Source: a virus
Virus record (IMG/VR): IMGVR_UViG_3300030329_004698
Span: 1 to 34,283 of that record
Length of the DNA stretch: 34,283 nt
Strand: one strand, 5' to 3'
In this document: piece by piece, positions 3,194 through 30,555 of the stretch
Position numbering within the stretch: position 1 is the stretch's first letter
Layout of the letters: every line of letters starts with the position of its first letter
Translations under genes and position numbers: made by a program
The notes under the pieces: model-generated
Told to the model about the DNA's origin: nothing
Databases searched by the model: none
Seen by the model: the letters and a program-made list of their open reading frames with translations, nothing else

Positions 3194-4765
3194 ATGGAGT
3201 ACAATTTACCTAGTGAGATTGTAAAAGATCTCAATTTCGGTGATGACGCTAAGATTGCAATAATAGCTGGCGTCGAAAAACTAACAAAAGCCGTAAAATC
3301 CACATTAGGCGCATCTGGGAAATGTGTCATTTACGAAGATGGACGCGGCAAACCGGTGGTCACAAAAGACGGAGTAACCGTTGCCCAAAGCGTAGTCTTA
3401 TACGACCCGGTTGAAAATATTGGAGCTACTTTAATTAAAGAAGCTGCGAATAATACAGTGAAAGAAGCAGGTGACGGTACCACCACGGCTACTGTCCTTG
3501 CTGAAGCACTGATAAAAAAAGTTAACAACGTTAAGTATAAAAATGCTAGCGTAAGAGAAATTAAAGAAGGAATAAAAACAGGACTTGAAAAAGTTAATAA
3601 ATATCTTGAAGAAGCCGCTATTGATGTTACAGGTACTATGCTTAGTGATGTTAGTGCCATTTCTTGTAATAATGACGCTACTCTTGGCGGTATTATCGCT
3701 GAAGCTTACGAAAAAGTAGGTAAAGACGGTGTAGTACTGATGGAGGAGTCAGAAACTGAAGACACTTACGTAGAATTAGTTGATGGTGTGCAGATAGACT
3801 GTGGATTAACTTCACCACATTGGGTAACTAATACAGAAAAACATAAAGCAGAATTAGATAATCCTTATATTTTAATTGTATCTAGTGAAATACCTAATAT
3901 AAGAAAAATACAAGGCGTATTAGAACATGTTATAAAAAAAGGTAGAGCTTTACTTATAGTAGCTCCAGTGGCACAATCAGTTAAAGCTGCGCTAATGATG
4001 AACAAGGTGAAAGGTAATATTAAGATAAATATTATAGATTTACCTGGCTTTGGCCCTACAAAAAAAGACGCTACTGAAGATTTAGCTGTTTTAACAGGGG
4101 CTACAGTTATAAACGAAGAACTAGGAGATGATTTAGATATGATCACTCTAGAATATCTAGGTGAAGTAGAATATGCTACCACTGACGATAGGCACACTGT
4201 TATAACTTTAGGAGATATAACACCTAAGGTTAAAGAAAGAATAAAAGAGGTGAAAGTTAAAATTAAAGATGAAAAGAACGGATTTATAAAAAAGAAGTTG
4301 GAAGATAGGCTGGCCGCTTTATCAGGCTCCGTAGGAATCATAAAAGTAGGGGCTGGTTCTAAAGTAGAACTAAAAGAAAAGAAAGATCGAGTGGAAGATG
4401 CGATCTACGCCACAAAAGCGGCCTTGAAAGAAGGTATCGTGCCAGGTGGTGGAGTTGCTTTGCTCGACGCTTCCCAAAAAATTTCTCCTAACGGAGTTGG
4501 GGAAGAAATACTATTAGAGGCTATAAAAGCTCCTTTTAGAATTATATTGGAAAACGCTGGTATAGAACAAGTATCTGCTAGACCTGATAAAGGTATGGGC
4601 ATAGATGTAGTTACTGGTGAAAGCGTAGATATGATTGAATCAGGTATAATCGATCCGGTTTTGGTAACAAAATCGGCGCTAAAAAATGCTGTTTCGGTTG
4701 TATCAACTATTATATCTGCTGATTGTGTAATTTCAAATATGAGAACAGATGAAAGCAGTAAATAA
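3194..4765 (+). CDS. groEL: Phage-encoded chaperonin GroEL (Cpn60)
   Basis: A 523-residue, essentially full-length GroEL (E. coli 548). All three domains are present. The ATP site has TKDGVT (58-62 region, Asp59 matching E. coli Asp52) and [13 protein letters not shown] (93-105, matching the Asp87 motif). The hydrolytic Asp of VEDA is kept as Asp402, and PGGGVALL (417-424) follows. The apical domain includes [10 protein letters not shown] (199-208), where the substrate-binding Tyr, Tyr and Phe of E. coli are replaced by Leu, His and Trp, suggesting altered client or GroES binding. The C-terminus ends MRTDESSK and lacks the GGM tail. It overlaps groES by 17 nt. It probably folds virion proteins and should form the usual ring; whether it works alone or with host subunits is unknown. 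Confidence 0.96.
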
Positions 4766-5006
4766 TTATATAGTAGTAGAAAATATAAAAGAAGGTCCTA
4801 AAAAAGTAGGCGGTTTAATTTTAACTGAAGAAATAGACAGTGACAATAGGTATATAAAGGCTAACGTTGTATCAGTAGGCAACTTAGTTGAAGGTATTAA
4901 AGAAAAAGATATAGTTTATTATGATAAACACGCTGGACATGGAGTTCAGTATAAAGACATATTATATCAGGTTATCCGCTCGGGTGATGTGGTACTAATA
5001 GATTAG
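4749..5006 (+). CDS. groES: Phage-encoded co-chaperonin GroES (Cpn10)
   Basis: An 85-residue Cpn10-fold protein, slightly shorter than E. coli GroES (97). It has an N-terminal strand ([13 protein letters not shown]), a mobile-loop region with GPKKVGGLILTEE matching the GGI/GGL-type hydrophobic loop that docks on GroEL, and the C-terminal barrel strands (KEKDIVYYDKHAGHGVQY, then ILYQVIRSGDVVLID). The start lies inside the end of groEL, so the two are translationally coupled. The order is groEL then groES, the reverse of the usual bacterial operon. It should cap the phage GroEL and might also cap the host one. Confidence 0.9.
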   Translation: MKAVNNYIVVENIKEGPKKVGGLILTEEIDSDNRYIKANVVSVGNLVEGIKEKDIVYYDKHAGHGVQYKDILYQVIRSGDVVLID

Positions 5007-5076: not shown

Positions 5077-5469
5077 ATGGAAGTAGAAAATTTCTTGTAT
5101 TTTGCTAAAACTGGAACTGCAGGTGATGCGGTAACAGATGCTGCTTGTTACCCGGTATCTTCTTTTTTAGGAAGCCAACCGCTTAGCGCTACTACTACAG
5201 GTTTGTATTTTAAAGACTCTACTAATACGGAGCACGCGGCTACTACGTCGGGTAAACACAATCTTGTAACGCTAACACACGCTAACATTTCAGCGACTCC
5301 AAATATACATAAAGAAGTGGCTCGTGCCGTGGCTAGAGTAGCGGCGAATCCTGGAAAAGGAAAAGTATTAACCGTTGTGGACACAGCTAATGGTGTTGTT
5401 GCAGAAGAATTTGAGGCGATAAATGACGCTACTCAAATAACTTGCACTGCTATAGCTATTACACAGTAA
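5077..5469 (+). CDS. Putative virion protein, paralogue family member 1 (130 aa)
   Basis: A 130-residue, Thr/Ala-rich protein starting after AATTAAAATTATGG. It has the pattern CYPVSSFLGSQPL, then GLYFKDSTNTEH, then a helical segment (HKEVARAVARVAANPGKG) and a beta tail. The same layout recurs in the next gene and in the second half of the one after, so these are paralogues. Composition, lack of signal or membrane segments and position in a structural block suggest a capsid decoration or minor virion protein. That role is inference and no named family is recognised. Confidence 0.7.
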   Translation: MEVENFLYFAKTGTAGDAVTDAACYPVSSFLGSQPLSATTTGLYFKDSTNTEHAATTSGKHNLVTLTHANISATPNIHKEVARAVARVAANPGKGKVLTVVDTANGVVAEEFEAINDATQITCTAIAITQ

Positions 5470-5480
5470 AAATTATAGAT

Positions 5481-5837
5481 ATGAAACAAAGAACTTTTAT
5501 GTACTTTAACATGGCTGACCCAGTTGCTTCAAGTTGGGTTGACGATGGTAACATGTACCCAACTAGTAGTTTCCTGGGGATGGATTCAACAGGAGCTAAT
5601 GTTTTTACGATGTATTTTAAAGCATGGAATGGTCATAACGACGCTCCAGATGACATCGCTTGTACTATAGTTAACGGCACTGATGCTGTTGACCAAACAA
5701 ACAGAATTGCCGGAATGGACGCTATGGTGTCTAAGGCAAACACAGTAAATAAAGAAGGTTTCGTAGTTGCTTTTAGCGAAATCGAGAATGTTAAACCAGG
5801 AGGGATTGCCAGCATAGCTGTCACGCTCGACTCTTAA
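5481..5837 (+). CDS. Putative virion protein, paralogue family member 2 (118 aa)
   Basis: An in-frame ATG exists at 5442 inside the previous gene, but I choose the ATG at 5481 (MKQRTFMYFNMADP): it follows TAAAAATTATAGATATG and its N-terminus aligns with the neighbours, giving 118 residues. It shows MYPTSSFLGMDSTG, then TMYFKAWNGHND, then a helical AGMDAMVSKANTVN stretch, matching the neighbours' (C/M)(Y/V)P-x-(S/T)S(F/Y)LG and YFK landmarks. Probably a minor virion or decoration protein, by context only. Confidence 0.7.
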   Translation: MKQRTFMYFNMADPVASSWVDDGNMYPTSSFLGMDSTGANVFTMYFKAWNGHNDAPDDIACTIVNGTDAVDQTNRIAGMDAMVSKANTVNKEGFVVAFSEIENVKPGGIASIAVTLDS

Positions 5838-5849
5838 AAATAATTAAAA

Positions 5850-6665
5850 ATGAAAACACCTTACTTATATTTCGGACGAAAAGGTTACATAGCTACAGCT
5901 GGTGTTGTTAATGGAGTTTATTCTGCTTTAACAAACGCTAACTCAGGTATGTTACCTGTCGTTAAAGATAATTCAACCTTACCTCATTCATTGAGAGTAC
6001 TGTTCAAATCTACTACTACTGTTAGTTCAGTGCGTGGAAACCTTTTACTAACTGCAACAGACGCTACTCAAGTAGATTTTGTTGACGGAAGTGCTCTAAC
6101 AGCCAATACAGCTGCTGGCGAAGTTACAAACATGTCAGGTTTAGTTAAATCGTTTACAGTTGGTTCTGGTGATCAAGTGGTTACTGTGTTAGATGTATCT
6201 GATACTTCTGGTATGACTGTTATAACTGGTGATACAGTTTATATGGAAGAAATGAACTTTTCTTCAACAGTTTTACCTATTAATACTGTTGGTGCTGATT
6301 TATGCGTACCAGCAACATCTTATTTAGGAGCTGAACCTTTAGCTTTTACAGAAGGAGTTGGTGATAACGCAGGGTTATATCACGATGGTACGGCTTTAGA
6401 CGCGACTAGATTATACTTTAAATCTTGTGATGGTTCTCCAGCTGTGGATACAGTTGATTTAGTTCACACTGCAGACAAGTATAAAGATGTTTGCGAAGCT
6501 ATGGAACACCTATGCAACTCTACTGTTTATGATGAAATGATTAAAGTTCACTACTTAACGACAACTACAGGAGCTCTTGAGGACGGACAAGTTCTTCATG
6601 ACGCTTTTAAACAAAGAGGTATCTTAGTTAAAAGATGCTTGATAACTTCAACCGCTAGATCATAG
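5850..6665 (+). CDS. Putative virion protein with inserted beta module, paralogue family member 3 (271 aa)
   Basis: A 271-residue protein. The N-terminus (MKTPYLYFGRKGYIATA) resembles the start of the two preceding proteins and LRVLFKSTTT resembles their YFK strand. A beta segment around residues 90-135 (FTVGSGDQVVTVLDVSD, then MTVITGDTVYMEEM) follows. The second half repeats the family pattern: CVPATSYLGAEPL, TRLYFKSCDGSPAVDTVDLV, CEAMEHLCNSTVYDEM. It therefore looks like a duplicated family member with a module between the copies. Virion surface or decoration function is likely from context but unproven. Confidence 0.7.
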   Translation: MKTPYLYFGRKGYIATAGVVNGVYSALTNANSGMLPVVKDNSTLPHSLRVLFKSTTTVSSVRGNLLLTATDATQVDFVDGSALTANTAAGEVTNMSGLVKSFTVGSGDQVVTVLDVSDTSGMTVITGDTVYMEEMNFSSTVLPINTVGADLCVPATSYLGAEPLAFTEGVGDNAGLYHDGTALDATRLYFKSCDGSPAVDTVDLVHTADKYKDVCEAMEHLCNSTVYDEMIKVHYLTTTTGALEDGQVLHDAFKQRGILVKRCLITSTARS

Positions 6666-7403: not shown

Positions 7404-7796
7404 ATGAGTATATTTAATAAAATTTTATCAAGTGGAGCTGGCGATCTTATAAAAGAGGTCGGTGGTGTTATAGATAACTTACACACGTCTAAAGAAGAAA
7501 AATTAGAAGCTGAAAGAAGAATAAAAGCGATGATTATAGGTTTTGAAGCAGAAATGCAAAAACAAGTAACTAGTAGATGGGAGAGTGATATGAAATCAGA
7601 CTCTTGGCTTTCTAAAAACGTACGACCAATGACGCTTATATTTTTAATAGTATGTACGGTATTATTAATATTTATAGATGCAGGTTTCTTAGAATTCAAC
7701 GTTAAAGATTCTTACGTTGATTTATTACAATTAGTATTAATAACAGTGATCGGGGCTTATTTCGGCGGACGCTCACTTGAAAAAGTAAAAAAATAA
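7404..7796 (+). CDS. Putative holin (3-TM/GTA-type family)
   Basis: A 130-residue protein. The N-terminal part is amphipathic and coiled (HTSKEEKLEAERRIKAMI), then SDSWLSKNVRPMT (about 65-77), two hydrophobic helices (about 76-94 and 107-122) and a C-terminal GGRSLEKVKK. The SDSWLS..RP motif ahead of two helices and the GRS.EK ending match the holin family described from gene transfer agents and many marine phages. It should permeabilise the inner membrane at lysis. No endolysin gene is recognisable nearby. Confidence 0.7.
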   Translation: MSIFNKILSSGAGDLIKEVGGVIDNLHTSKEEKLEAERRIKAMIIGFEAEMQKQVTSRWESDMKSDSWLSKNVRPMTLIFLIVCTVLLIFIDAGFLEFNVKDSYVDLLQLVLITVIGAYFGGRSLEKVKK

Positions 7797-10540: not shown

Positions 10541-10754
10541 GTTAATAAGAAAAATCAGTGTAGGTAAAGACTACAAGAACGACGCAATGCATTACTCTGT
10601 TGGTCAAGAGGTTTATGGTGGACATACTATTTGCGATATAATAGAAGAAGAAGATAAGTTTTCTATTTATATTAAAAAAAATAAAGATGTTTTGCCTTGG
10701 AAGGACTTTAATAAAAACATGGCGGTGTCTGTTGAGTATAACTTAGAATATTAA
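10533..10754 (+). CDS. Hypothetical protein (73 aa)
   Basis: A 73-residue protein overlapping its upstream neighbour by 8 nt and its downstream neighbour by one base, clearly part of a tightly packed operon. It looks like a small beta barrel: LIRKISVGKDYKNDAMHYSV, GQEVYGGHTICDIIEEED, FSIYIKKNKDVLPW. No recognised family and no membrane segment. Confidence 0.65.
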   Translation: MSKLIRKISVGKDYKNDAMHYSVGQEVYGGHTICDIIEEEDKFSIYIKKNKDVLPWKDFNKNMAVSVEYNLEY

Positions 10755-11347
10755 TGAAAAGTATTTACAACTTCGTTGTAACACCTAAAGGGAAAAGATA
10801 CAACAATACTAAAAAGATAGATGACAAAGAGCTTATTATAAACGCTGAAATATTTAATCACCAATATATAAATAGAGAAGCTATAGTAATATCAACTCCT
10901 ATAGTAGGTGATGATTTAGATATAAAACCAGGAGACACAGTTGTGGTCCATCATAATGTTTTTAGAAGATGGCATGACATGAAAGGTAGAGAAAGGAACA
11001 GTAGAAGTTATTTTAATGAAAGTACTTACTTGGTCAACCATGATCAGATATTTTTATACAAAAGGAAAAACAACTGGTTATCGCCTAAAAGGTATTGTTT
11101 TATTCAACCTATAAAAGACACAGATCAATTTAACACAGAAGTAGAAAAACCATTAATAGGTATAGTTAAATACTCGGATGGAACTGTAGATGTTGGTGAT
11201 CTTGTAGGGTTTAGACCTAATTCAAAATATGAATTTATTATCGATGGAGTTAGGTTATATCGAGTTTTATCTAATTTTATAACAATTAAATATGAATATC
11301 AAGGAAACGAAAAAGCGTATAATCCAGGCTGGACACAAAGCGGTTGA
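10754..11347 (+). CDS. Putative tandem GroES-like (Cpn10-fold) protein (197 aa)
   Basis: A 197-residue protein that appears to hold two Cpn10-like barrels. The first half lines up with the GroES of this window: MKSIYNFVV with [16 protein letters not shown] with LILTEEI, then IKPGDTVVVHHNVF with IKEKDIVYYDKHAG, and DQIFLYK. The second half has KRYCFIQPI, LIGIVKYSDGTVDVGDLVGF, YEFIIDGVRLYRV and ITIKYE, matching the C-terminal strands of bacterial GroES (GDIV.F then IDG..Y). The lengthened loops and lack of a clear GGI/GGL mobile loop argue against ordinary capping. It ends with the only TGA stop in the window and overlaps the next gene by 56 nt. Role unknown; the fold call needs structure prediction. 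Confidence 0.55.
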   Translation: MKSIYNFVVTPKGKRYNNTKKIDDKELIINAEIFNHQYINREAIVISTPIVGDDLDIKPGDTVVVHHNVFRRWHDMKGRERNSRSYFNESTYLVNHDQIFLYKRKNNWLSPKRYCFIQPIKDTDQFNTEVEKPLIGIVKYSDGTVDVGDLVGFRPNSKYEFIIDGVRLYRVLSNFITIKYEYQGNEKAYNPGWTQSG

Positions 11348-11567
11348 AGAACTAATTAAAGTAGCTAAAGAAGCTATTGTAGATAGTGATGATGATATAT
11401 CAGCTGATAGATTAAAAAACGCAGCAGCTACAAAAAAGCTAGCTATATTTGATGCGTTTGAAATATTAAATAGAATCCAAGAAGAAGAAAACATATTAGA
11501 AGGTAAAGAACCTGAAGAGAAAAAAGAAAGAGTATTTAAAGGATTCGCAGAAGGAAGATCTAAGTAA
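11292..11567 (+). CDS. Probable terminase small subunit or packaging accessory (91 aa)
   Basis: A 91-residue helical charged protein ending in the TAATG overlap with TerL. Segments: MNIKETKKRIIQAGHKAVEE, LIKVAKEAIVDSDDDISADR, KNAAATKKLAIFDAFEILNR, then an acidic/basic tail. Size, helical content and position directly before TerL fit a small terminase subunit, which binds DNA and starts packaging. No helix-turn-helix is certain, so another packaging partner is possible. The start overlaps the preceding gene by 56 nt and has the context AATTAAATATG. Confidence 0.55.
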   Translation: MNIKETKKRIIQAGHKAVEELIKVAKEAIVDSDDDISADRLKNAAATKKLAIFDAFEILNRIQEEENILEGKEPEEKKERVFKGFAEGRSK

Positions 11568-13780
11568 TGTACGAGCAAACTTTATATCAAATAATAGAAC
11601 CCGTAAAAAAGACTACAATAAGTAGACTTAACAAAGGTAAAAAATGGAAGTACGGTTATAACAAAGAACATGATTTAGTTGTTATTTCTAGAACTGGACA
11701 AATAGGCGAGATATACGAAATACAAGGTTTAGCTATAGCTTTGCCTAAAAAACCAAAAGAGATATTTAAACACCCTAAAAACAAATGGGTTAAAATAGAT
11801 CAACCTAAAGAGCTAAGTAAGTTAAAAAATATATTTGACTGGAGAGCTTACCCAGAAGAAGCCAAAGACCAGTGGTATGATTATATAGACGAGGAGTTTA
11901 AAAGAAGAGAAGAAGGTTTCTGGTTTGTAAATAATGGTAAAGCAACCTACATAACAGGCACGCATTACATGTACTTACAGTGGAGTAAAATTGACGTTGG
12001 AGCTCCTGATTTTAGAGAAGCTAACAGGTTGTTTTACATATTCTGGGAAGCTTGCAAAGCTGATAAAAGGTGTTACGGGATGTGTTATTTAAAAAATAGA
12101 CGTTCTGGTTTTTCTTTTATGTCTTCTGCGGAAACAGTTAATTTAGCCACTATATCAAGTGATAGTAGATATGGGATACTTTCTAAAAGTGGTGCAGATG
12201 CTAAAAAAATGTTTACAGATAAAGTTGTACCCATATCGGTTAATTATCCTTTTTTCTTTAAACCAATACAAGATGGTATGGATAGACCTAAAACAGAATT
12301 AGCCTATAGAGTACCAGCTAGTAAGTTTACACGAAAGAAAATAACAAGCAACGAAAAACTTGAAGAGTTACAAGGTTTAGATACAACTATTGACTGGAAG
12401 AACACTGGAGACAATAGCTATGATGGTGAAAAATTAGCGCTATTAGTGCATGATGAAAGTGGTAAATGGGAAAGACCTGATAATATATTAAACAACTGGA
12501 GAGTTACAAAGACATGTTTAAGGTTAGGTAGTAGGATAGTTGGTAAATGTATGATGGGTTCTACTAGCAACGCTCTTGACAAAGGCGGTGACAATTTTAA
12601 AAAACTATATAATGATTCAGATGTTACACAGAGAAATAGAAATGGACAGACAAAGAGCGGTTTATACTCTTTGTTTATACCAATGGAGTGGAACTATGAA
12701 GGATTTATTGACGAACACGGAATTCCTGTCTTTTCTAACCCAGACCATGATGTTATCGGACCCGATGGGGAATTGATAGATATTGGTATAATAGATCACT
12801 GGAACAACGAAGCTGAAGGTTTGAAACAAGATCAAGACGCTTTAAATGAGTTTTATAGACAATTTCCAAGAACAACAGAGCATGCGTTTAGAGACGAGGC
12901 TTTAAACAGTATATTTAATTTAGTAAAAATATACGAACAAATAGATTACAATGAAGAGATGACTAGAACACTTAGTGTATCTACTGGTAGTTTTCAGTGG
13001 GTAAATGGTATTAAAGATACACAAGTTATATTTTATCCAGATCCAAAAGGAAGGTTTAATGTTAGTTGGATGCCGCCTAGTCACTTACAAAACAAAATTA
13101 TATTAAAAAATGGTGTAAGATATCCAGGTAATGAACACATGGGCGCTTTTGGTTGTGATAGTTACGATATATCTGGAACAGTTGATGGTAGAGGATCTAA
13201 GGGGGCTTTACATGGACTAACTAAGTTTTCTATGGAAGACGCACCTTCAAGTTCTTTTTTCTTAGAATATATCGCTAGACCACAAACAGCTGATATATTT
13301 TTCGAAGACGTATTAATGGCTTTGGTGTTTTACGGTATGCCACTTTTAGCAGAAAACAACAAACCTAGATTATTATATTATTTAAGAAGAAGAGGATATA
13401 GAGGTTATTCTATGAATAGACCAGATAGAGTTTGGAATAAGTTGTCAACAACTGAAAAAGAAATAGGAGGTATACCAAATTCAAGTGAAGATATTAAACA
13501 AGCCCACGCGGCAGCTGTTGAGATGTATATACAAAATCATGTTGGAAACATGGGAGATGGAAATTACGGAGGTATGTATTTCAACAAAACGTTAAACGAT
13601 TGGGCTAGATTTGATATAACAAAAAGAACAAAGTTTGACGCTACTATAAGTAGTGGTTTAGCTATAATGGCTTGCAATAGACATCTATACGCACCTAACG
13701 CAAAAATTGAAAAACCGAAACTAAACATAAGTATTGCTAAATATGAAAACAAAGGCAATATATCTAAATTAATAAAATAA
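11567..13780 (+). CDS. terL: Terminase large subunit (DNA packaging ATPase/nuclease)
   Basis: A 737-residue packaging motor. A degenerate Walker A region lies at about 174-186 (CYLKNRRSGFSFM), Walker B at 290-301 (LALLVHDESGKW, with Asp296 and the catalytic Glu297), and coupling motif III at about 327-341 (KCMMGSTSNALDKGG). The linker has the typical FPRTTEHAF (433-441). The RNase H-like nuclease starts with FGCDSYDISG (528-537, metal-binding Asp531/Asp534), with further acidic residues at about 580 and near WARFDITKRTKFD. It threads DNA into the prohead through the portal and cuts it. An N-terminal extension of about 160 residues precedes the ATPase. The ATG overlaps the stop of the small gene upstream. 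Confidence 0.88.
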   Translation: MYEQTLYQIIEPVKKTTISRLNKGKKWKYGYNKEHDLVVISRTGQIGEIYEIQGLAIALPKKPKEIFKHPKNKWVKIDQPKELSKLKNIFDWRAYPEEAKDQWYDYIDEEFKRREEGFWFVNNGKATYITGTHYMYLQWSKIDVGAPDFREANRLFYIFWEACKADKRCYGMCYLKNRRSGFSFMSSAETVNLATISSDSRYGILSKSGADAKKMFTDKVVPISVNYPFFFKPIQDGMDRPKTELAYRVPASKFTRKKITSNEKLEELQGLDTTIDWKNTGDNSYDGEKLALLVHDESGKWERPDNILNNWRVTKTCLRLGSRIVGKCMMGSTSNALDKGGDNFKKLYNDSDVTQRNRNGQTKSGLYSLFIPMEWNYEGFIDEHGIPVFSNPDHDVIGPDGELIDIGIIDHWNNEAEGLKQDQDALNEFYRQFPRTTEHAFRDEALNSIFNLVKIYEQIDYNEEMTRTLSVSTGSFQWVNGIKDTQVIFYPDPKGRFNVSWMPPSHLQNKIILKNGVRYPGNEHMGAFGCDSYDISGTVDGRGSKGALHGLTKFSMEDAPSSSFFLEYIARPQTADIFFEDVLMALVFYGMPLLAENNKPRLLYYLRRRGYRGYSMNRPDRVWNKLSTTEKEIGGIPNSSEDIKQAHAAAVEMYIQNHVGNMGDGNYGGMYFNKTLNDWARFDITKRTKFDATISSGLAIMACNRHLYAPNAKIEKPKLNISIAKYENKGNISKLIK

Positions 13781-21879: not shown

Positions 21880-24800
21880 ATGCCAGAAATTAAAAACGCT
21901 TTCACTCGAGGTAAAATGAATAAAGATCTCGATGAAAGGTTAATACCAAATGGAGAGTATAGGGACGCTATGAACGTTCAAGTTTCTACTTCTGAAGGAG
22001 CAGATGTAGGTACAGTGCAAAATATATTGGGTAATACTAGAGTTGAGAATATAGTTCCAGATGGCGGGGCGTTTAAATGTATTGGTAGTGTTATTGATGA
22101 AAAAAATAACAAATTATACTGGTTTGTAACAAGTGATAATGTAGATGCTATAATAGAACACAGAAAGGGTTACGAATCAGCTCCAGTTATAGTCGACACT
22201 AAAGCCGGTACAGCTAACGCGGTGCTAAAGTTTACAGACAAAATAATAACAGGTATAAATATAGTAGATAGTATGTTGTTTTGGACAGACAACACAAACG
22301 AACCTAGAAAAATAAACATAGAAAGAGGTAAACTTGGAACACAAACTGGTAGTATAGATTCAAGCGTAGCTGTTCATACTAAATTAGTTGTTAACGACGA
22401 AATATTAAAAGATTACTTCACCGCTTCAGTTACAGTTGGTACAACTTCACAAAACATAGATGTATCAGATGCTTCTAATTTAGAAGTTGGTATGTCTTTA
22501 GATAGTATAGCTGGTGTCGCTCAAAGTAGTGTCACAATAGACGCAATAACAGGTAACTCTATATCTTTTAATACACAGGTTGTTGTTGCTAGTGCTGATG
22601 AATTAATATTTTCTAAACCTATAGATATAACAGAAGAACACATTACCGTTATTAAGAAAAAACCTTCTAAAGCGCCTTCTGTAAAAGTAAATACAGGAAC
22701 TGATTTGCCAAAACCTAGTTTGTTTGAGAAAACATTTTTAAGGTTTTCATGTAGATACAAATACGCCGACGGTGAATATTCTGCTTTTGGTCCTTTTACA
22801 GATATTATTTTTGATGCTAGTTATACTGAAAAGTATGATGTAGATACTGCTTTTTCTGTTAAAGAACCTTATAACGCTGCTATGGTTAACAACATAGAGT
22901 CAATTGAACTAACTGATTTTGTGTCACCGGACATGCCTTTAGATGTTGTTCAAATTGATATCTTATACAAACAAGAGGATTCTCCTATTGTTTACTCTAT
23001 GACTAGTATTAAATCTAATGATCCTGAATGGAGCGAAGATGGATCAAACCAAGATACTAGTTATAATTCTAAATACAAAGGTAAATATATATTAAAATCT
23101 GAAAATATATACGCTGCTCTTCCAGAAAATCAAACATTAAGACCATGGGACAATGTTCCTAAAAAAGCCTTATCACAAGAGATAACAGGTAGTAGATTAA
23201 TATATGGTAACTACACTCAAAACTACAATATAGGTAAAGATACACTAGGTGATATTATAAAACCTGGTTTAGACATAAACTACAATATAAGAAACCACGT
23301 TAGTGACTTTAAAGATGGAGGTTTACCTTCTTTAAAATCTCAAAGAAATTATCAATTAGGTGTCGTTTTTGGTGATGAATACGGTAGAGAAACACCCGTA
23401 TATACATCTACAAACGCTGCTGTTAAGATACCATGGGAAGATAGACGTTTTGGTAAAACTGCTAGTAATTCTCTTCAATTAACAACGAACTTAACATCAC
23501 AGGTTCCTAGTTGGGCAAGTTATTATAAATTTTATATAAAAGAAACTTCTGGAGAGTATTATAACTTAGTGATGGATAAAGTTTACGTTCCAACTATAGA
23601 TATAAACGAAAGTGAAAGTCATAACCATATATGGATTTCTTTCCCATCATCTGACAGAAACAAATTAACAGAAGAAAATCATTTAATTTTAAAAAAGAAA
23701 ATAGGAACTGGAGAGGTTCAAGTAGAAACAGAAAACAGATTTAGAATATTAGAAATAAAAAACGAAGCCCCAGATTCTATTAAATATAAATATGTAAGTT
23801 TAGGTTCAGTAAAAAATACAGAAGGCACAGACACTAATAGATTAACGACAATACAGACAGAATATACACTTTTCCCTAGTTCAAGTTACAGGATAGATGA
23901 GCAAACTAATTATATTGAGGTAAATAGAGATGTTTGGCAAAATGATTTTAAAAACGGACCGTTAATGGTAGGAACTGTATTTGACCCATGGAATGAACAT
24001 GTTTATGTTTCTTGGGAAAAGAAAACTGGAGACACGGTGGAAGGATCTAAAAGATATAGAGTTATGGCTATGCCTTATGTACACTCTTATAAAGATGTAG
24101 TAGAAAGTAAAGATCAAGATTACAAAATGACCTTAGAAGAAACTATTTCAGAAAAAGACGCTTTAATAGCTTACGATGACGGTACAGATTTACATGATGA
24201 TTTAACTTTTAAAGTAGAAAGAAAGGTTGAAAAAGACATGGATGAATTTTCAGGTAGGTTCTTTGTTAAAATAGCTTCGGATGACAATACGGGTTCTACT
24301 ATAGAGCACGGCGTTACAACAGAACTATTAGATGATTATGTAGCATCGGTACAACAAAATTCTTATTGGTTTGTAGATGAGTATACTAATACTCAAACTT
24401 ACACGAGCGGTATAATAAACCCAACTTGGCAGTGGACTATGCCTACCAACGACAATGATTCTATTACCGGTGTTGACACCTTAGCTAACACTGAAGCTGA
24501 GTGGGACGCTTTAATAACAAGTATAGGAGCTAACGCTAATATTTTCATAATAGATAATTCACACTTTGCTGCTGGGCAAAACTCATTAAATAACTACGCT
24601 AAAAATGCTGGTAATATAATGAGAGGCACTACTGATCAATACCCTGTAGTGCAATGGACAGATAAACTATACCCTCAGGTTTCGGGTAGTCCAGCTGTTA
24701 CAAGTATAATTGCAAGCCAAGTAAACGCTAATGGGTATAGATGGTGGCCTTTTGATAAAAACTACGGTTCAAGTGGCGTTTTAACTAGTCTTGTTATACC

Positions 24801-27800
24801 ACACACGGATACTATAATAACAAATCAAGACGAAAATTACGCTGTTAACGGTTTAGAAGGTATTATAACAACCCAAACCGCACACACTAATTCTGACAAT
24901 GATGGTTATAGAACGTGGCGTCAAGAAGGGGATTTGGCTACAGTTGGTGATTCAGATGCACAATACTCTTTTGACACAACTTACGGTGAACCTGGAGAAA
25001 CTGGTAGGCATTTTATACATTTATCGTTTTTAGCACCGGGTGATGATTTAGTTGATGATACTATAGATATAGACGGTAACGCTTATTTAAAAGGTAAAAA
25101 CAGTTTAGCTAAACATTTACAAGGTATATGGGGAGGTGGTGTTTTTTGTAAAACAGACGGTTCTGATTTTGGAAACTCTGATGAGCGTATAATTGAAATG
25201 GAAGGTAATTATGATAACAACAACGAACCACAAGCTGACACTCCAGCACCAGGTGTGGGTAAAGGTTACAACGAAAATTATGCGTTAAAACACGATAATC
25301 AATGGAACCCGTCTTATCCTGCTAGTAGAGACCCTAAGGGAGAGGTAAGAGATTTTGTAGCTAACATAAACGTTGGTAATAAATTTAAATTCTCAGGTGA
25401 TTCAACAAATACTATTTACACTATATTATCAAAGTCAATAAAAAAATTATATAACCACACACCTTGGAGAAGAAGAAAAATATATGATGGTACAAACTGG
25501 GTATATGGAGGAGATAGTGTTGAAGAAGCAGCGGTAACTTGGGGCGCTAGTGCTAACGGTAGTGGTAAACCAGACGATGATGCTACAGCCACTGGTACTC
25601 CAGCAGCTGATTTACAAACAAAAATCAAAGACTTTGGTAAAGCAAATAACAGAAGAATATGTTATATTATTGAAGTTGATAAAGATCCTAAAAGCGAAAC
25701 TTATAAACCTATAGATGGATCAACACTTGATGTAGGTGCTTCAACTAAAATACAATTTATAGAAACTGATCCCGCTTCTTTAGCTGGTCGTGCATCAAAA
25801 AATCCAGCTATATGGGAAACAGAACATGGTAAACCCACTGATTTAGATATATACTATGAAGCCAGCGATAATATACCTGCTAAAATAAACGAAATAAACG
25901 CTGAAGTTTTCGCGCCTGTTGGATGTAAGGTGGAATTTATAGATATACCTGAAGCTAGAAACGGACAAACCAACATAGTAGGAGACGTAAACTTAGAATC
26001 ATGGGATGGTTTAAATATTCACGAACTAGTAAGTTTCACTTTAAACCCAGGGTTTAACATTAAAGACGCAGCTGGTAGTGATATAGATTACAGAGGACGT
26101 CAGTTGAGATTTTTCAAAAAAGATGGTAGTTATGTTACTGCGGCTGTTTACCCAACAGATGATGATGGTACTTATGTAACACAGTTCCACGTGATCTCTG
26201 TGGCTGACCCTGATTTTGATATAGGTTTAAGTTGGTATAATTGTTTTTCGTTTGGTAATGGTATAGAGTCTGATAGAATTAGAGACGAGTTTAATCAAAT
26301 GCAAATATTAAACGGTGCTAAAGCTTCTACTACAACCGAAGAACCATACGAAGAAGAAACAAGAAAACATGGTTTAATTTATTCTGGTATATACAACTCT
26401 AACTCTGGTATAAACAATTTAAACCAATTTGTAATGGCTGAAAAAATCACCAAAGAGTTAAATCCTACTTTTGGTGAAATACAAAAACTTTTTCAAAGAA
26501 GAACAAGTTTAGTGGCTTTCTGTGAAGATAGAGTTATTAGTATTCTTTCAAACAGAGATGCTTTATTTAACGCTGATGGCAATCCTCAACTTATATCATC
26601 TAGTGCCGTACTGGGTGACGCTACACCTTTTATTGGAGATTACGGTATATCAAAAAATCCAGAATCTTTTGCTAAAGAAACTTATAGAGCTTATTTTGCT
26701 GACAAACAAAGAGGAGCTATATTAAGGTTATCTAATGATGGTATAACACCTATATCTGACGCTGGTATGCATGATTGGTTTAGAGATAATTTACCGGATG
26801 CAGGTAGCGTTATTGGAACATATGACGAATACAAAAAAGATTATAATTTAACATTAACAGACCCTGTATCAGAAAATTTATTAGTTAACGCATCTATAGA
26901 TGATGGTGAACCTGTTGTTGGAGGAGTGGCAGCTGGTACTATATTGCAAAACGGGCCACTAACAAACGGTAATTCTTTTATGTTACCTGCTATAACACAA
27001 GAAGACAACACAAGTTCTTTCTGGATGGATATAAATAACGAACAGTTAAACACAGAAACAACTATAATAAATTATCCAGAGTTGTTACCTGGAGCTATAC
27101 AACCTTATGTGCCTTATGTAGCACCCGTAATTGGAGTAACGGCTCAAGACACGGAATTTGAAGTGTTAGGCGTTTATAGTGGTAAAAGAATAGTTAATTA
27201 TAACTTTGTGCAAAGTTCTTCTACGTTTGACCCTTTTGCTAACGATACTCATGGTACACCTCAGGCATCTGTAGGTAGAACACATCGTTACCCAAACACA
27301 GCGTTGCAAGGTAGTGGTAACACAAGTAATACAAGCATTTCAGGAAGCCACGTTTATAGAAAACAAAACGAAGGTAACATGTTCCACAATTGGAAAACAA
27401 ATGCAGATGGTAACGGTAATGGTAACTCAGGTAATACTACTAAACTTGGTATAGTTTGGTGGCATGACGGTACGGTGTCAGAAGACTACGATGCTGCCCC
27501 TAACAACAACCCACAGCTTCTTGATACTGGTGGTTCAGGTATAAACTTAACAAACACAACTTATTGTACTTTTCCTGGCGCTTATAATGCCGCCTTCGAT
27601 GTAACAACTAGTGCTGATTCTGTTTATAACGGCACTACTGTTTTAAATAACACTTGGTATGATGCCATCGGTAACGTGTTCGAGCCTAAACAAAACACTA
27701 TATTTAATGGTGAAGAAATACAAATAGAATTTGGCGTGTTCACTCCAGATCCAGATGGTATTATTTCTGATAATACTGCTTGGGATGATGATGCTGACGA

Positions 27801-30555
27801 AGGAATTAGATCTGGATTTTTTGTGGTTTTAGAAGACGGTGCTACTGGTGCTCAAGTTCCAAATAGCGTGTTAATAGACCCAGCTACAGGAAGTAATCCT
27901 TTTCAAGAAACAGCTAACACTCCTCATAGTGCTAGCTTTACACACGGAATAAACGTACAGGATGGTTGGTCAACAAACTCTAAACACGTTTTTAGTAGGT
28001 TGCCTAGAAAAGACACTATTAGAGTCCACTATGTTAATTATAAATTTTACGATGCAACCCTTGGTGACAACGAAGGCGTTGTTGTTGAAGATTTAAAAGT
28101 TAATTTAGCTTTTTACACAGGTTCGAAATCAAAACAATCAGTACATATATTGCGATGGTTTCAAATAAGAAAAATACTACAAATGAAGACATCAGCTGTT
28201 GCGGCTGTGACACCAGTAACCGAGGTACAAGAAGTGTTACAAGTGCCTTCAACTACTATACCAGCATGGACAAGTGTTAACCACAATTTGGTTGATTGGA
28301 ATTTATCAGGAACAAACTTTACACAACATAGTGCGGCTGTAGGGCTTTACGGTAATGAAACCGCAACTGGCACGCCTACTTCTTATTATATACAAAACGC
28401 TGATCCATCACAAGCGCCTGTTTCGGTAACAGCTGGATCGTCACAATTAATAATACCACCTGGACTAACATATGACGCTGGAAACGGTTCACCAAACTCA
28501 GGAAGTTTATCAGGAACAGCACCAGCTTCACAAAACTTATCTGATGGTGTATACACAACAGACGATAAAATAATTATAGATTCCGCTGGCAGCACCGTTT
28601 CTTTAACTCAAGATATATCAAACAGTACTTGGCAATCTGATAATTGGTACTTGATAGATATAGCTTACGATACGGCTCCTAGCGATTACGGTCAAAGCGG
28701 TGGTTCAAGTATAATAGCTTATGCTGTTTTAGACGCAGCCGCTGTAGCTGACACAACACCTGCAAATTATATTGGAACTGTTAGAGAAGATTTAAGTGGT
28801 GTTAAAAGTATTGAGTTACAAGCGGGTGTAAGTAGAATAGCTGACCAATATACAGATAGCGACGCTACACCTGAAACAGTTTATAGAGCTATATTTAAAA
28901 CGCCAACTAACTTACAAAACAGCTTAAGCACTGATGTATTAGAATTAAAATTTGATAATTTTGTTGGTGAAATTAAAAAAGTAACACTAATAAATATATC
29001 TGAAACCAGTACAACGGGACAAATAACAGATTGGGTTGCTGATTCACAAGGATTAAATCACGTACATTCGTTATCTTCACCAACAGCTTTCTTTAAAAAC
29101 GGTAAATACAATTGGGTAAGTGCAAAAGATACTTTATCACTAAAACAATCGTTTAGCCCTAGCATAGGAACAGAAGCTACCGCCACATCTAACGGTGGAT
29201 GGGAGCTTAGATTTTCTGTAACAGAAGCTGTAAACGAGTACGGCACGCCTGTTACACCTATAAGTGGTAAACTAGAAGGTTACGTAACTAGCGCCCATGA
29301 TGGTACAAGTTGGAGGGGTTTTAAATTCGCTGGAATACAAGACACGGGAAATTATATTATAACAAGTAACTTTGATGGTACTGGTGGTTATGGCCCACAA
29401 GGTGCAGCGCTACCAATGAGTATCAAAAAAGATGGTGTAGATTATAGTAGCACTGGTTCTATATTAGATTATACTGGTACCGATATACCAACGTCTGATC
29501 AGATCAAGTTTAACCCAACTTCTGTAGCGGATTTTACAGGCGCTATAAACAATATTGTACTAATAAACAAAACCAATTTTATAAGCGGTGGAACTGCTTA
29601 TGCTTGGGAGTTTGAAGGATTTGACACTGGAATATATGATTTTATACAGTTTAACGATACAAATTTAAATATACAATTTAACGATGCTCCAAGATTTCTT
29701 CCTGGTGCAGTTATAGATGATACAGTTAGACTACAACAATATATTCCACAAGTAATATCTGTTAACGAGAAATACAAAATACAATTTAAACACAATATAA
29801 CTAATAACAAAGCTATAGGTTACTATTATTACAATAACAATGGTGAGGGTTTTGAACATATAGTTTATGGCAATGGAGCTTTAACAAACCACAGCGCCGA
29901 GCATGTTATTGGAGACGCTACACATAGTGGTAATAAACAAAAAAACACTTTTGTTATTTTTGTAGAAACAAACACTGTTACTGGTACTTTAGACGATATT
30001 TCTATGCAACAAGTTTTTGATTATGAACCAACAACAGTAACATATAATGAAAATGTAAAAGGATGGGTTAGTTTTAAATCTTTTTTACCAGAACAAGGCG
30101 TTAGTTTAGCTAAAAAATATTACACAATGAAAGACGGAGAGTTATGGGAACATCATAACGAAAATGAAGAAAGAAATTTATTTTATGGAATACGTTTATC
30201 TGGTGGTAAAGACAACTCTACATTAACAGCTGTATTAAACGCACAGCCGTCAACTATAAAAATATATAATACTTTAAATTACGAGGGAACCCAATCTCAA
30301 GTACAAGAATACTCTAGTAAAACGGAATACGGTTATACTGTTAGTACGGCTAATACGCATAACTTACAGTCTGGAGGTAAAGACGGGTGGTACGTTGATT
30401 ATATACAAACAGATAAACAAGAAGGAACTATAAAAGAATTTATTGAGAAAGAAGGTAAGTGGTTTAACTACATAAGAGGTAACGAAAACGATATAAAAAC
30501 TTCTGATTTTAGTTTCCAAGGAATAGGTATAATTAATCAGATAAATAACGTTTAA
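21880..30555 (+). CDS. Giant nozzle/muzzle-like tail protein (2891 aa)
   Basis: A single 8.7-kb frame without interruption. The N-terminus (KNAFTRGKMNKDLDERLIPN, GEYRDAMNVQVSTSEGADVG, TVQNILGN) is the typical opening of podovirus nozzle/tail-hub beta-propeller proteins. A beta module sits at about 181-248 (NLEVGMSLDSIAGVAQSSVT). A conserved core near 1600 includes AFCEDRVISILSNRDALF, YRAYFADKQRGAILRLSNDG and ISDAGMHDWFRDNL. Residues about 1750-2710 hold beta-sandwich segments, with strand ends such as GEIKKVTLINIS (about 2360), GAINNIVLINKT (about 2554) and GTLDDISMQQV (about 2702), like carbohydrate-binding modules. The end (KGWVSFKSFLPEQGVSLAKK) resembles the nozzle core again. It probably closes the tail tip and binds the host surface; no enzymatic motif is seen. 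Confidence 0.75.
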   Translation: MPEIKNAFTRGKMNKDLDERLIPNGEYRDAMNVQVSTSEGADVGTVQNILGNTRVENIVPDGGAFKCIGSVIDEKNNKLYWFVTSDNVDAIIEHRKGYESAPVIVDTKAGTANAVLKFTDKIITGINIVDSMLFWTDNTNEPRKINIERGKLGTQTGSIDSSVAVHTKLVVNDEILKDYFTASVTVGTTSQNIDVSDASNLEVGMSLDSIAGVAQSSVTIDAITGNSISFNTQVVVASADELIFSKPIDITEEHITVIKKKPSKAPSVKVNTGTDLPKPSLFEKTFLRFSCRYKYADGEYSAFGPFTDIIFDASYTEKYDVDTAFSVKEPYNAAMVNNIESIELTDFVSPDMPLDVVQIDILYKQEDSPIVYSMTSIKSNDPEWSEDGSNQDTSYNSKYKGKYILKSENIYAALPENQTLRPWDNVPKKALSQEITGSRLIYGNYTQNYNIGKDTLGDIIKPGLDINYNIRNHVSDFKDGGLPSLKSQRNYQLGVVFGDEYGRETPVYTSTNAAVKIPWEDRRFGKTASNSLQLTTNLTSQVPSWASYYKFYIKETSGEYYNLVMDKVYVPTIDINESESHNHIWISFPSSDRNKLTEENHLILKKKIGTGEVQVETENRFRILEIKNEAPDSIKYKYVSLGSVKNTEGTDTNRLTTIQTEYTLFPSSSYRIDEQTNYIEVNRDVWQNDFKNGPLMVGTVFDPWNEHVYVSWEKKTGDTVEGSKRYRVMAMPYVHSYKDVVESKDQDYKMTLEETISEKDALIAYDDGTDLHDDLTFKVERKVEKDMDEFSGRFFVKIASDDNTGSTIEHGVTTELLDDYVASVQQNSYWFVDEYTNTQTYTSGIINPTWQWTMPTNDNDSITGVDTLANTEAEWDALITSIGANANIFIIDNSHFAAGQNSLNNYAKNAGNIMRGTTDQYPVVQWTDKLYPQVSGSPAVTSIIASQVNANGYRWWPFDKNYGSSGVLTSLVIPHTDTIITNQDENYAVNGLEGIITTQTAHTNSDNDGYRTWRQEGDLATVGDSDAQYSFDTTYGEPGETGRHFIHLSFLAPGDDLVDDTIDIDGNAYLKGKNSLAKHLQGIWGGGVFCKTDGSDFGNSDERIIEMEGNYDNNNEPQADTPAPGVGKGYNENYALKHDNQWNPSYPASRDPKGEVRDFVANINVGNKFKFSGDSTNTIYTILSKSIKKLYNHTPWRRRKIYDGTNWVYGGDSVEEAAVTWGASANGSGKPDDDATATGTPAADLQTKIKDFGKANNRRICYIIEVDKDPKSETYKPIDGSTLDVGASTKIQFIETDPASLAGRASKNPAIWETEHGKPTDLDIYYEASDNIPAKINEINAEVFAPVGCKVEFIDIPEARNGQTNIVGDVNLESWDGLNIHELVSFTLNPGFNIKDAAGSDIDYRGRQLRFFKKDGSYVTAAVYPTDDDGTYVTQFHVISVADPDFDIGLSWYNCFSFGNGIESDRIRDEFNQMQILNGAKASTTTEEPYEEETRKHGLIYSGIYNSNSGINNLNQFVMAEKITKELNPTFGEIQKLFQRRTSLVAFCEDRVISILSNRDALFNADGNPQLISSSAVLGDATPFIGDYGISKNPESFAKETYRAYFADKQRGAILRLSNDGITPISDAGMHDWFRDNLPDAGSVIGTYDEYKKDYNLTLTDPVSENLLVNASIDDGEPVVGGVAAGTILQNGPLTNGNSFMLPAITQEDNTSSFWMDINNEQLNTETTIINYPELLPGAIQPYVPYVAPVIGVTAQDTEFEVLGVYSGKRIVNYNFVQSSSTFDPFANDTHGTPQASVGRTHRYPNTALQGSGNTSNTSISGSHVYRKQNEGNMFHNWKTNADGNGNGNSGNTTKLGIVWWHDGTVSEDYDAAPNNNPQLLDTGGSGINLTNTTYCTFPGAYNAAFDVTTSADSVYNGTTVLNNTWYDAIGNVFEPKQNTIFNGEEIQIEFGVFTPDPDGIISDNTAWDDDADEGIRSGFFVVLEDGATGAQVPNSVLIDPATGSNPFQETANTPHSASFTHGINVQDGWSTNSKHVFSRLPRKDTIRVHYVNYKFYDATLGDNEGVVVEDLKVNLAFYTGSKSKQSVHILRWFQIRKILQMKTSAVAAVTPVTEVQEVLQVPSTTIPAWTSVNHNLVDWNLSGTNFTQHSAAVGLYGNETATGTPTSYYIQNADPSQAPVSVTAGSSQLIIPPGLTYDAGNGSPNSGSLSGTAPASQNLSDGVYTTDDKIIIDSAGSTVSLTQDISNSTWQSDNWYLIDIAYDTAPSDYGQSGGSSIIAYAVLDAAAVADTTPANYIGTVREDLSGVKSIELQAGVSRIADQYTDSDATPETVYRAIFKTPTNLQNSLSTDVLELKFDNFVGEIKKVTLINISETSTTGQITDWVADSQGLNHVHSLSSPTAFFKNGKYNWVSAKDTLSLKQSFSPSIGTEATATSNGGWELRFSVTEAVNEYGTPVTPISGKLEGYVTSAHDGTSWRGFKFAGIQDTGNYIITSNFDGTGGYGPQGAALPMSIKKDGVDYSSTGSILDYTGTDIPTSDQIKFNPTSVADFTGAINNIVLINKTNFISGGTAYAWEFEGFDTGIYDFIQFNDTNLNIQFNDAPRFLPGAVIDDTVRLQQYIPQVISVNEKYKIQFKHNITNNKAIGYYYYNNNGEGFEHIVYGNGALTNHSAEHVIGDATHSGNKQKNTFVIFVETNTVTGTLDDISMQQVFDYEPTTVTYNENVKGWVSFKSFLPEQGVSLAKKYYTMKDGELWEHHNENEERNLFYGIRLSGGKDNSTLTAVLNAQPSTIKIYNTLNYEGTQSQVQEYSSKTEYGYTVSTANTHNLQSGGKDGWYVDYIQTDKQEGTIKEFIEKEGKWFNYIRGNENDIKTSDFSFQGIGIINQINNV

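What the first reader, a model, noticed from the sequence alone, without database searches (positions are those of the whole stretch)
3194..5006. Complete phage chaperonin pair in reversed order: groEL then groES
Both chaperonin partners are phage-encoded, overlap by 17 nt, and are ordered groEL-groES, opposite to the usual bacterial groES-groEL. GroEL keeps the ATPase residues but has changed substrate/GroES-contact residues in the apical [10 protein letters not shown] region (Tyr, Tyr and Phe of E. coli become Leu, His and Trp) and lacks the GGM tail. This suggests long phage-specific evolution rather than recent capture, and perhaps specialised folding of its own capsid or giant tail protein.
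Basis: partly seen in the sequence, partly recalled or inferred. Interest (0 to 1): 0.65.

Follow-up and report, generated by a model that had tools for sequence, protein, structure and literature searches.

The report
Phage-encoded chaperonin with two lids
This marine phage carries its own protein-folding machine (a divergent GroEL with its GroES lid, genes in reversed order) plus an overlooked second, double-domain lid protein; the pair itself is a known kind of phage module, but the missing ring-to-ring contact and the second lid make it an unusual variant worth testing.

Summary
A 523-aa GroEL (3194-4765) and an 85-aa GroES (4749-5006) overlap by 17 nt in the order groEL-groES. That order holds in all 81 family members (window plus 80 IMG/VR loci) and in none of 73 adjacent bacterial pairs, but it is not unique: Elemovirus and phage ctfjg026 share it. 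The family is one fully supported clade outside the sampled bacteria, beside chaperonins of other Bacteroidota phages, so long phage ownership is supported. ATPase residues are intact and the genes are under purifying selection.

Family-wide, the ring-ring contact segment (463-464 region) is deleted (81/81; 0/80 bacteria), the D83-K327 pair is charge-swapped, R197-E386 is lost, and L234Q and L259K put polar residues in the substrate/GroES groove. I infer a mainly single-ring, roofless-lid chaperonin dedicated to phage proteins.

A homologue exists even in phi19:3, which lacks GroEL, beside a single Cpn10. The client protein is unknown. New variant of a known kind.

The parts
3194..4765 (+). 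groEL: 523-aa group I chaperonin subunit, no GGM tail, N-terminal extension of about 8 residues
   Evidence: AlphaFold2 model matches GroEL structures
3788..3823 (+). apical segment [12 protein letters not shown] (E. coli Y199/Y203/F204 positions changed to L/H/W; R197 changed to C)
   Evidence: (81-member alignment), control
4556..4579 (+). site of the six-residue deletion at the ring-ring contact (E. coli about 460-467, including S463 and V464)
   Evidence: 81/81 family, 0/80 bacteria; helix missing in the model
4749..4765 (+). 17-nt overlap of groEL end and groES start (different frames)
4749..5006 (+). groES: 85-aa single-domain co-chaperonin, without the roof hairpin
   Evidence: hhalign to bacterial GroES E=7e-13
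4788..4859 (+). GroES mobile loop with hydrophobic motif GGLIL
   Evidence: alignment; G22, L23 in 80/81
10754..11347 (+). tandem (Cpn20-like) co-chaperonin, 197 aa, two GroES-fold domains
   Evidence: PHROG 13932 E=2.6e-18; hhalign to bacterial GroES E=2.5e-5; predicted fold matches Chlamydomonas Cpn20 7ekq_R, Foldseek E=8e-5, Z 9.1 over 157 residues
10790..10873 (+). mobile-loop-like segment of domain 1 (KELIIN motif), low-confidence/flexible in the model
11072..11299 (+). domain 2 of the tandem protein: GroES barrel, loop motif deleted
11567..13780 (+). terminase large subunit (context)
   Evidence: PHROG 6681 E=9e-176; nearest isolate relatives

Best explanation
The locus is a phage-owned group I chaperonin system of marine Bacteroidota-type phages. 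SHOWN: an intact groEL-groES pair, overlapping, in reversed order, conserved and under purifying selection, of old phage descent, with intact ATPase residues; a third gene upstream of terL encodes a tandem GroES-like protein. INFERRED: (1) the GroEL ring hydrolyses ATP and encloses a client under the small GroES, whose GGLIL mobile loop docks on the remodelled apical groove; groove and loop evolved together, so the pair works with itself and poorly with the host partner. (2) Since the ring-ring contact segment is deleted in every member, the functional form is mainly a single heptameric ring. (3) GroES without roof hairpin leaves a more open dome, as in T4 gp31. (4) The tandem protein is a second lid, alone or mixed with the single-domain GroES. 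(5) The clients are late virion proteins, judging only by the location among late genes.
For: Families and ORFs. Conservation of the pair in 81/81 loci and overlap. dN/dS about 0.05-0.25. Old phage clade. ATPase residues kept, ring-contact deletion 81/81 against 0/80 bacteria, D83K with K327D (charge-swapped pair; KD or RD in 61 of 81), R197C/E386K, L234Q 81/81, L259K/R 81/81. The predicted GroEL fold matches GroEL but has no helix between residues 455 and 467. GroES mobile loop kept, roof missing; T4 gp31 likewise lacks roof loops (PMC6318259). Tandem GroES. A related phage GroEL (phi38:1 gp054) is detected by mass spectrometry in infected cells (PMC13288928).
Against: No biochemical test. 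Ring state cannot be read from sequence with certainty: the proven single-ring AR9 chaperonin has no such deletion, and R452 and E461 may still be present in the window protein, depending on the alignment. Polar residues in the groove could weaken both client and GroES binding. phi14:2 has a GroEL with no detectable Cpn10, so a phage GroEL need not use a lid. The client is only guessed from gene position.
Confidence: 0.72

Rival explanations
1. The tandem GroES-fold protein at 10754-11347 is not a lid but a head/packaging or assembly protein that merely uses the GroES barrel.
For: It lies just upstream of terL in every relative examined; a homologue exists in phi19:3, which has no GroEL; domain 2 has lost the loop motif; no significant Pfam or NCBIfam match.
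Against: Both domains match GroES structures individually and the whole matches Cpn20; homologues in phi19:3 and phi38:1 pass the Pfam Cpn10 cut-off; domain 1 keeps a flexible loop with a hydrophobic motif. phi19:3 could use host GroEL, as T4 gp31 does.
Confidence: 0.35
2. The GroEL is an ordinary double-ring chaperonin; the deletion only reshapes the ring interface.
For: R452 is kept in the window protein and E461 may be; phage EL makes double rings that separate on ATP binding (PMC7185714).
Against: S463 and V464 positions are deleted in 81/81 and in none of 80 bacteria; the segment's helix is missing in the model; E434 loop is shortened; the 105-109 contact is variable.
Confidence: 0.35
3. 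Recent capture of a host groE operon followed by fast change.
For: Nearest non-phage sequences are only 39-43% identical but include Flavobacteriia; long branches could pull the phage proteins out of the bacterial tree.
Against: Clade support 100 with other phage chaperonins outside bacteria, AU test p 2.8e-5, diversity within the family (down to 71% identity), reversed gene order.
Confidence: 0.06
4. The chaperonin acts on host proteins or on defence rather than on virion proteins.
For: No client is known; in Pervagoviridae the GroEL gene sits with replication genes, not with virion genes.
Against: In this family it sits at the start of a long same-strand late block; T4 and EL precedents concern capsid and lysis proteins.
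Confidence: 0.2

Closest known systems
Elemovirus (Flavobacterium phages elemoA-F) and phage ctfjg026 (MW202828) chaperonin modules
   Same: groEL followed directly by groES in reversed order; a tandem Cpn10-like gene upstream of terL; related terminase (64% and 45% identity)
   Different: GroEL only about 37-38% identical; overlap lengths differ; both keep the 460-467 segment at full length
Pervagoviridae (phi38:1, phi40:1, Calle) chaperonins
   Same: phage-owned GroEL, single Cpn10 and tandem Cpn10 upstream of terL; shortened 460-467 segment
   Different: Cpn10 lies upstream of GroEL with one gene in between; GroEL among replication genes
Virioplankton GroELs of Marine et al. 2017 (ISME J 11:2479)
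   Same: marine phage GroELs divergent from bacteria; from memory of the abstract, gene order tracks GroEL phylogeny
   Different: paper not held, so whether this very family is included could not be checked
Giant-phage chaperonins EL, OBP and AR9
   Same: phage-encoded group I-like rings, reported to work as single rings at least in part
   Different: much more distant; reported to need no co-chaperonin, whereas this family carries its own GroES
T4 gp31
   Same: phage co-chaperonin lacking the roof loops; made for a capsid protein
   Different: gp31 uses host GroEL; here the phage brings its own GroEL
Chloroplast/apicoplast Cpn20
   Same: two GroES domains in tandem, found together with a single-domain Cpn10; predicted fold matches along the whole length
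   Different: about 16-18% identity; domain 2 of the phage protein lacks the binding loop, while both loops are reported kept in Cpn20 (PMC3542282)

Membership tests
Group I chaperonin (GroEL/Cpn60) | full-length Cpn60 profile match with three-domain fold | tested here: met
   PF00118 positions 1-488 of 490, E=1.4e-57; NCBIfam NF000592 474.8 bits over cut-off 397, though below the TIGR02348 equivalog cut-off; Foldseek E down to 5e-45 to GroEL
Group I chaperonin (GroEL/Cpn60) | catalytic and nucleotide residues (D52, D87, T89-91, D398, D495) | tested here: met
   conserved wherever covered in 81 members; P33 is A in all
Group I chaperonin (GroEL/Cpn60) | double-ring contact residues E461, S463, V464, R452, E434 | tested here: not met
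   463-464 deleted 81/81, 434 region deleted, R452 not conserved in the family; this is not a strict criterion, as single-ring group I proteins exist
Group I chaperonin (GroEL/Cpn60) | ATP-driven ring with GroES-dependent folding | not testable with these tools
   needs purified protein
GroES/Cpn10 (4749-5006) | Cpn10 profile above cut-off and mobile loop with hydrophobic tripeptide | tested here: met
   PF00166 31.8 bits over 21.1; GGLIL loop
GroES/Cpn10 (4749-5006) | roof hairpin | tested here: not met
   nine residues shorter than the enterobacterial GroES at the roof; some bacterial GroES here are shortened too, and T4 gp31 also lacks it
Cpn20-type tandem co-chaperonin (10754-11347) | two GroES-fold domains in one chain | tested here: met
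Cpn20-type tandem co-chaperonin (10754-11347) | binding loop in both domains | tested here: not met
   domain 2 has a seven-residue gap over the loop motif; hence 'works like', not 'is', Cpn20
Cpn20-type tandem co-chaperonin (10754-11347) | co-chaperonin activity with a Cpn60 | not testable with these tools
   needs a complementation or binding assay
Giant-phage (EL/OBP/AR9) chaperonins | function without co-chaperonin | not testable with these tools
   presence of a conserved linked GroES argues against it

The most novel reading that the evidence does not exclude
The phage builds a mixed lid from one single-domain and several double-domain co-chaperonins (as proposed for chloroplasts, three Cpn20 plus one Cpn10 giving seven domains) on a single-ring GroEL with a remodelled groove, i.e. 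a chloroplast-like hetero-oligomeric chaperonin system that arose independently in phages.
Probability: 0.15. Interest if true: 0.75.

Novelty: new variant of a known kind. Interest (0 to 1): 0.42.

Why it matters
Phage chaperonins studied so far (EL, OBP, AR9) are reported to work without a lid, and T4 gp31 is a lid that borrows the host ring. This family has both ring and lid, lacks the ring-ring contact, and carries a second tandem lid protein. It would be a compact natural system for asking whether one ring is enough for encapsulation, how a client-specific groove evolves together with its lid, and whether double-domain co-chaperonins arose outside plastids.

Tried and rejected
Hypothesis that the tandem protein strictly accompanies a phage GroEL: rejected, phi19:3 has it (with a single Cpn10) but no GroEL; Gundel has neither. 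Recent host capture: rejected by tree and AU test. Phe-to-Trp as a family hallmark: rejected, 4/81. Sequence search of the tandem protein against the PDB found no relative; only profile and fold comparison did. Internal repeat between the two halves of the tandem protein was not detectable by profile comparison. Nineteen of 80 loci showed no tandem gene, but those stretches end within about 6.0 kb of groEL, and in the window the gene starts 5.99 kb downstream, so its absence there is undecided. Of the tandem-gene loci, three with at least 6 kb upstream showed neither GroEL nor GroES and one showed GroES only, also undecided, as the stretches may be too short. The main paper on virioplankton chaperonins is not held; what is said of it is from memory. 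E. coli numbering was taken from a Salmonella GroEL (L086), near-identical by general knowledge. The exact gap placement in 460-467 differs between two alignments; both remove 462-464.

Full report
CHECK. The window is a 34,283-base virus record of IMG/VR. The GroEL ORF 3194-4765 and the GroES ORF 4749-5006 are real, in the order groEL-groES with a 17-nt overlap, and match Cpn60 and Cpn10 above Pfam cut-offs. A scan of IMG/VR found 181 encoding loci; the best 80, 71-89% identical, were kept. All 80 have the same order; the overlap is 14 nt in 44 and 17 nt in 22 of the 81 members, and a few others are 4-29 nt. L026 alone carries a 146-aa ORF between the two genes. In 80 bacterial loci, 73 have an adjacent GroES and all 73 are groES-groEL. 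Pairwise dN/dS values of 0.05-0.25 show constraint on both genes and on the third gene below.

NOT UNIQUE. Among isolates, groEL-groES order is annotated in Elemovirus and in ctfjg026 from Manatee Spring. Panino has a Cpn10 two genes downstream of groEL. Pervagoviridae (phi40:1, Calle) and Immutovirus have the Cpn10 upstream. From memory, Marine et al. 2017 reported for virioplankton that GroEL-GroES order follows GroEL phylogeny and that viral GroELs are divergent; that paper is cited in held papers but is itself not held.

DESCENT. In a tree of 63 proteins the family is one clade (SH-aLRT 100) and joins phi14:2, Pervagoviridae, ctfjg026, Elemovirus and Panino outside all 38 bacterial rows, while Vibrio-phage GroELs nest with Salmonella and Bacteroides-phage GroELs fall in the Bacteroidota. 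Holding the family, five other phage GroELs and Immuto together with the Bacteroidota is rejected, p-AU 2.8e-5. Long branches warn against reading the order of the deep forks. The closest non-phage GroELs are 39-43% identical.

ANATOMY OF GroEL (E. coli numbering). Kept: T30, G32, K51, D52, D87, T89-T91, D398, G415, D495. Changed family-wide: P33A; Y199 to L/I/M; Y203 to H/N (two keep Y); L234Q (81/81); L259 to K/R (81/81); V263 to M/L; V264M; R197 to C/S/V; E386K (81/81). D83 and K327 are mostly swapped in charge (K or R at 83 with D at 327 in 61 of 81), which keeps a possible salt bridge with opposite polarity; the bacterial controls are D or E at 83 and K at 327 in 80/80. A net six-residue deletion falls in 460-467 and removes the S463/V464 contact in 81/81, against 0/80 bacteria; the 434 loop is also shortened. 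The AlphaFold2 model (mean pLDDT 75.7) has helix 446-454 and then no helix until after 468, and matches GroEL structures over the full length. From established knowledge, 199, 203, 204, 234, 237, 259, 263 and 264 line the polypeptide- and GroES-binding groove, and R452, E461, S463 and V464 are the positions changed in the single-ring mutant SR1. Hence the inference of altered specificity and a mainly single ring. Against certainty: AR9, a proven single ring, has no such deletion.

ANATOMY OF GroES. The 85-aa protein keeps the mobile loop (GGLIL; G22 and L23 in 80/81) and lacks nine residues of the roof region relative to the enterobacterial GroES. T4 gp31 also lacks roof loops, which is thought to help it take gp23 (PMC6318259).

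THE THIRD GENE. ORF 10754-11347 (197 aa), upstream of terL, hits PHROG 13932 'co-chaperonin GroES' at 2.6e-18. Its profile matches bacterial GroES at E=2.5e-5, mainly through domain 2, while domain 1 is closest to the small GroES (E=2.2e-4). The AlphaFold2 model (pLDDT 79.4; residues about 11-40 flexible) matches the Chlamydomonas Cpn20 chain 7ekq_R over its length (Foldseek E=8e-5; Z 9.1, 157 residues), and each half matches single GroES chains and domain 1 also gp31. Domain 1 has a loop with a hydrophobic motif (KELIIN); in domain 2 the loop motif is deleted. The gene was found in 61 of 80 loci; the other stretches end too early to tell. Homologues stand in the same place in ctfjg026, Elemovirus, phi38:1, Panino and phi19:3. 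phi19:3 has no GroEL but a single Cpn10 as well, so the tandem gene tracks the single Cpn10 better than GroEL in this small sample. In plastids Cpn10 and Cpn20 are reported to form seven-domain mixed lids (PMC3542282, PMC5780408). A phage counterpart is possible but untested, and the missing loop of domain 2 speaks against a simple copy.

FUNCTION. The best-supported view is a phage-dedicated chaperonin with co-evolved lids that folds late phage proteins. Shown: genes, conservation, descent, intact catalytic residues, remodelled groove, ring-contact deletion, tandem lid fold. Inferred: single ring, mutual specificity, mixed lid, client. Evidence that such chaperonins are made: phi38:1 GroEL is seen by mass spectrometry in infected cells and in virion samples (PMC13288928).

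VERDICT. Observation confirmed; interpretation partly supported; new variant of a known kind.

Noticed in passing
L026 3220-3660: A 146-aa ORF sits between groEL and groES in one relative; by eye it has an HxD...H pattern like a 2OG-Fe(II) oxygenase, but Pfam gives no significant match.
   Followed up: partly
window 5077-6665: The ORFs directly after groES share a P-x-[ST]-S-[FY]-L-G motif (two of them BLASTP E=1e-7 pairwise); probably paralogous small structural proteins.
   Followed up: partly
L256 6987-7589 (phi19:3 gp101): A Pachyviridae phage with no GroEL carries two Cpn10-type genes, one of them tandem; it may serve the host GroEL as T4 gp31 does.
   Followed up: partly
window 21880-30555: A single 2891-aa ORF (about a quarter of the window) follows the head genes; probably a giant virion or tail protein, not examined.
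   Followed up: no
window 7404-7796: Holin-like protein (PHROG 3427, E=1.6e-30) between structural genes.
   Followed up: no
L259 3976-5448 (phi14:2): A Crassvirales phage encodes a shortened GroEL (490 aa) and has no detectable Cpn10 in its genome.
   Followed up: no
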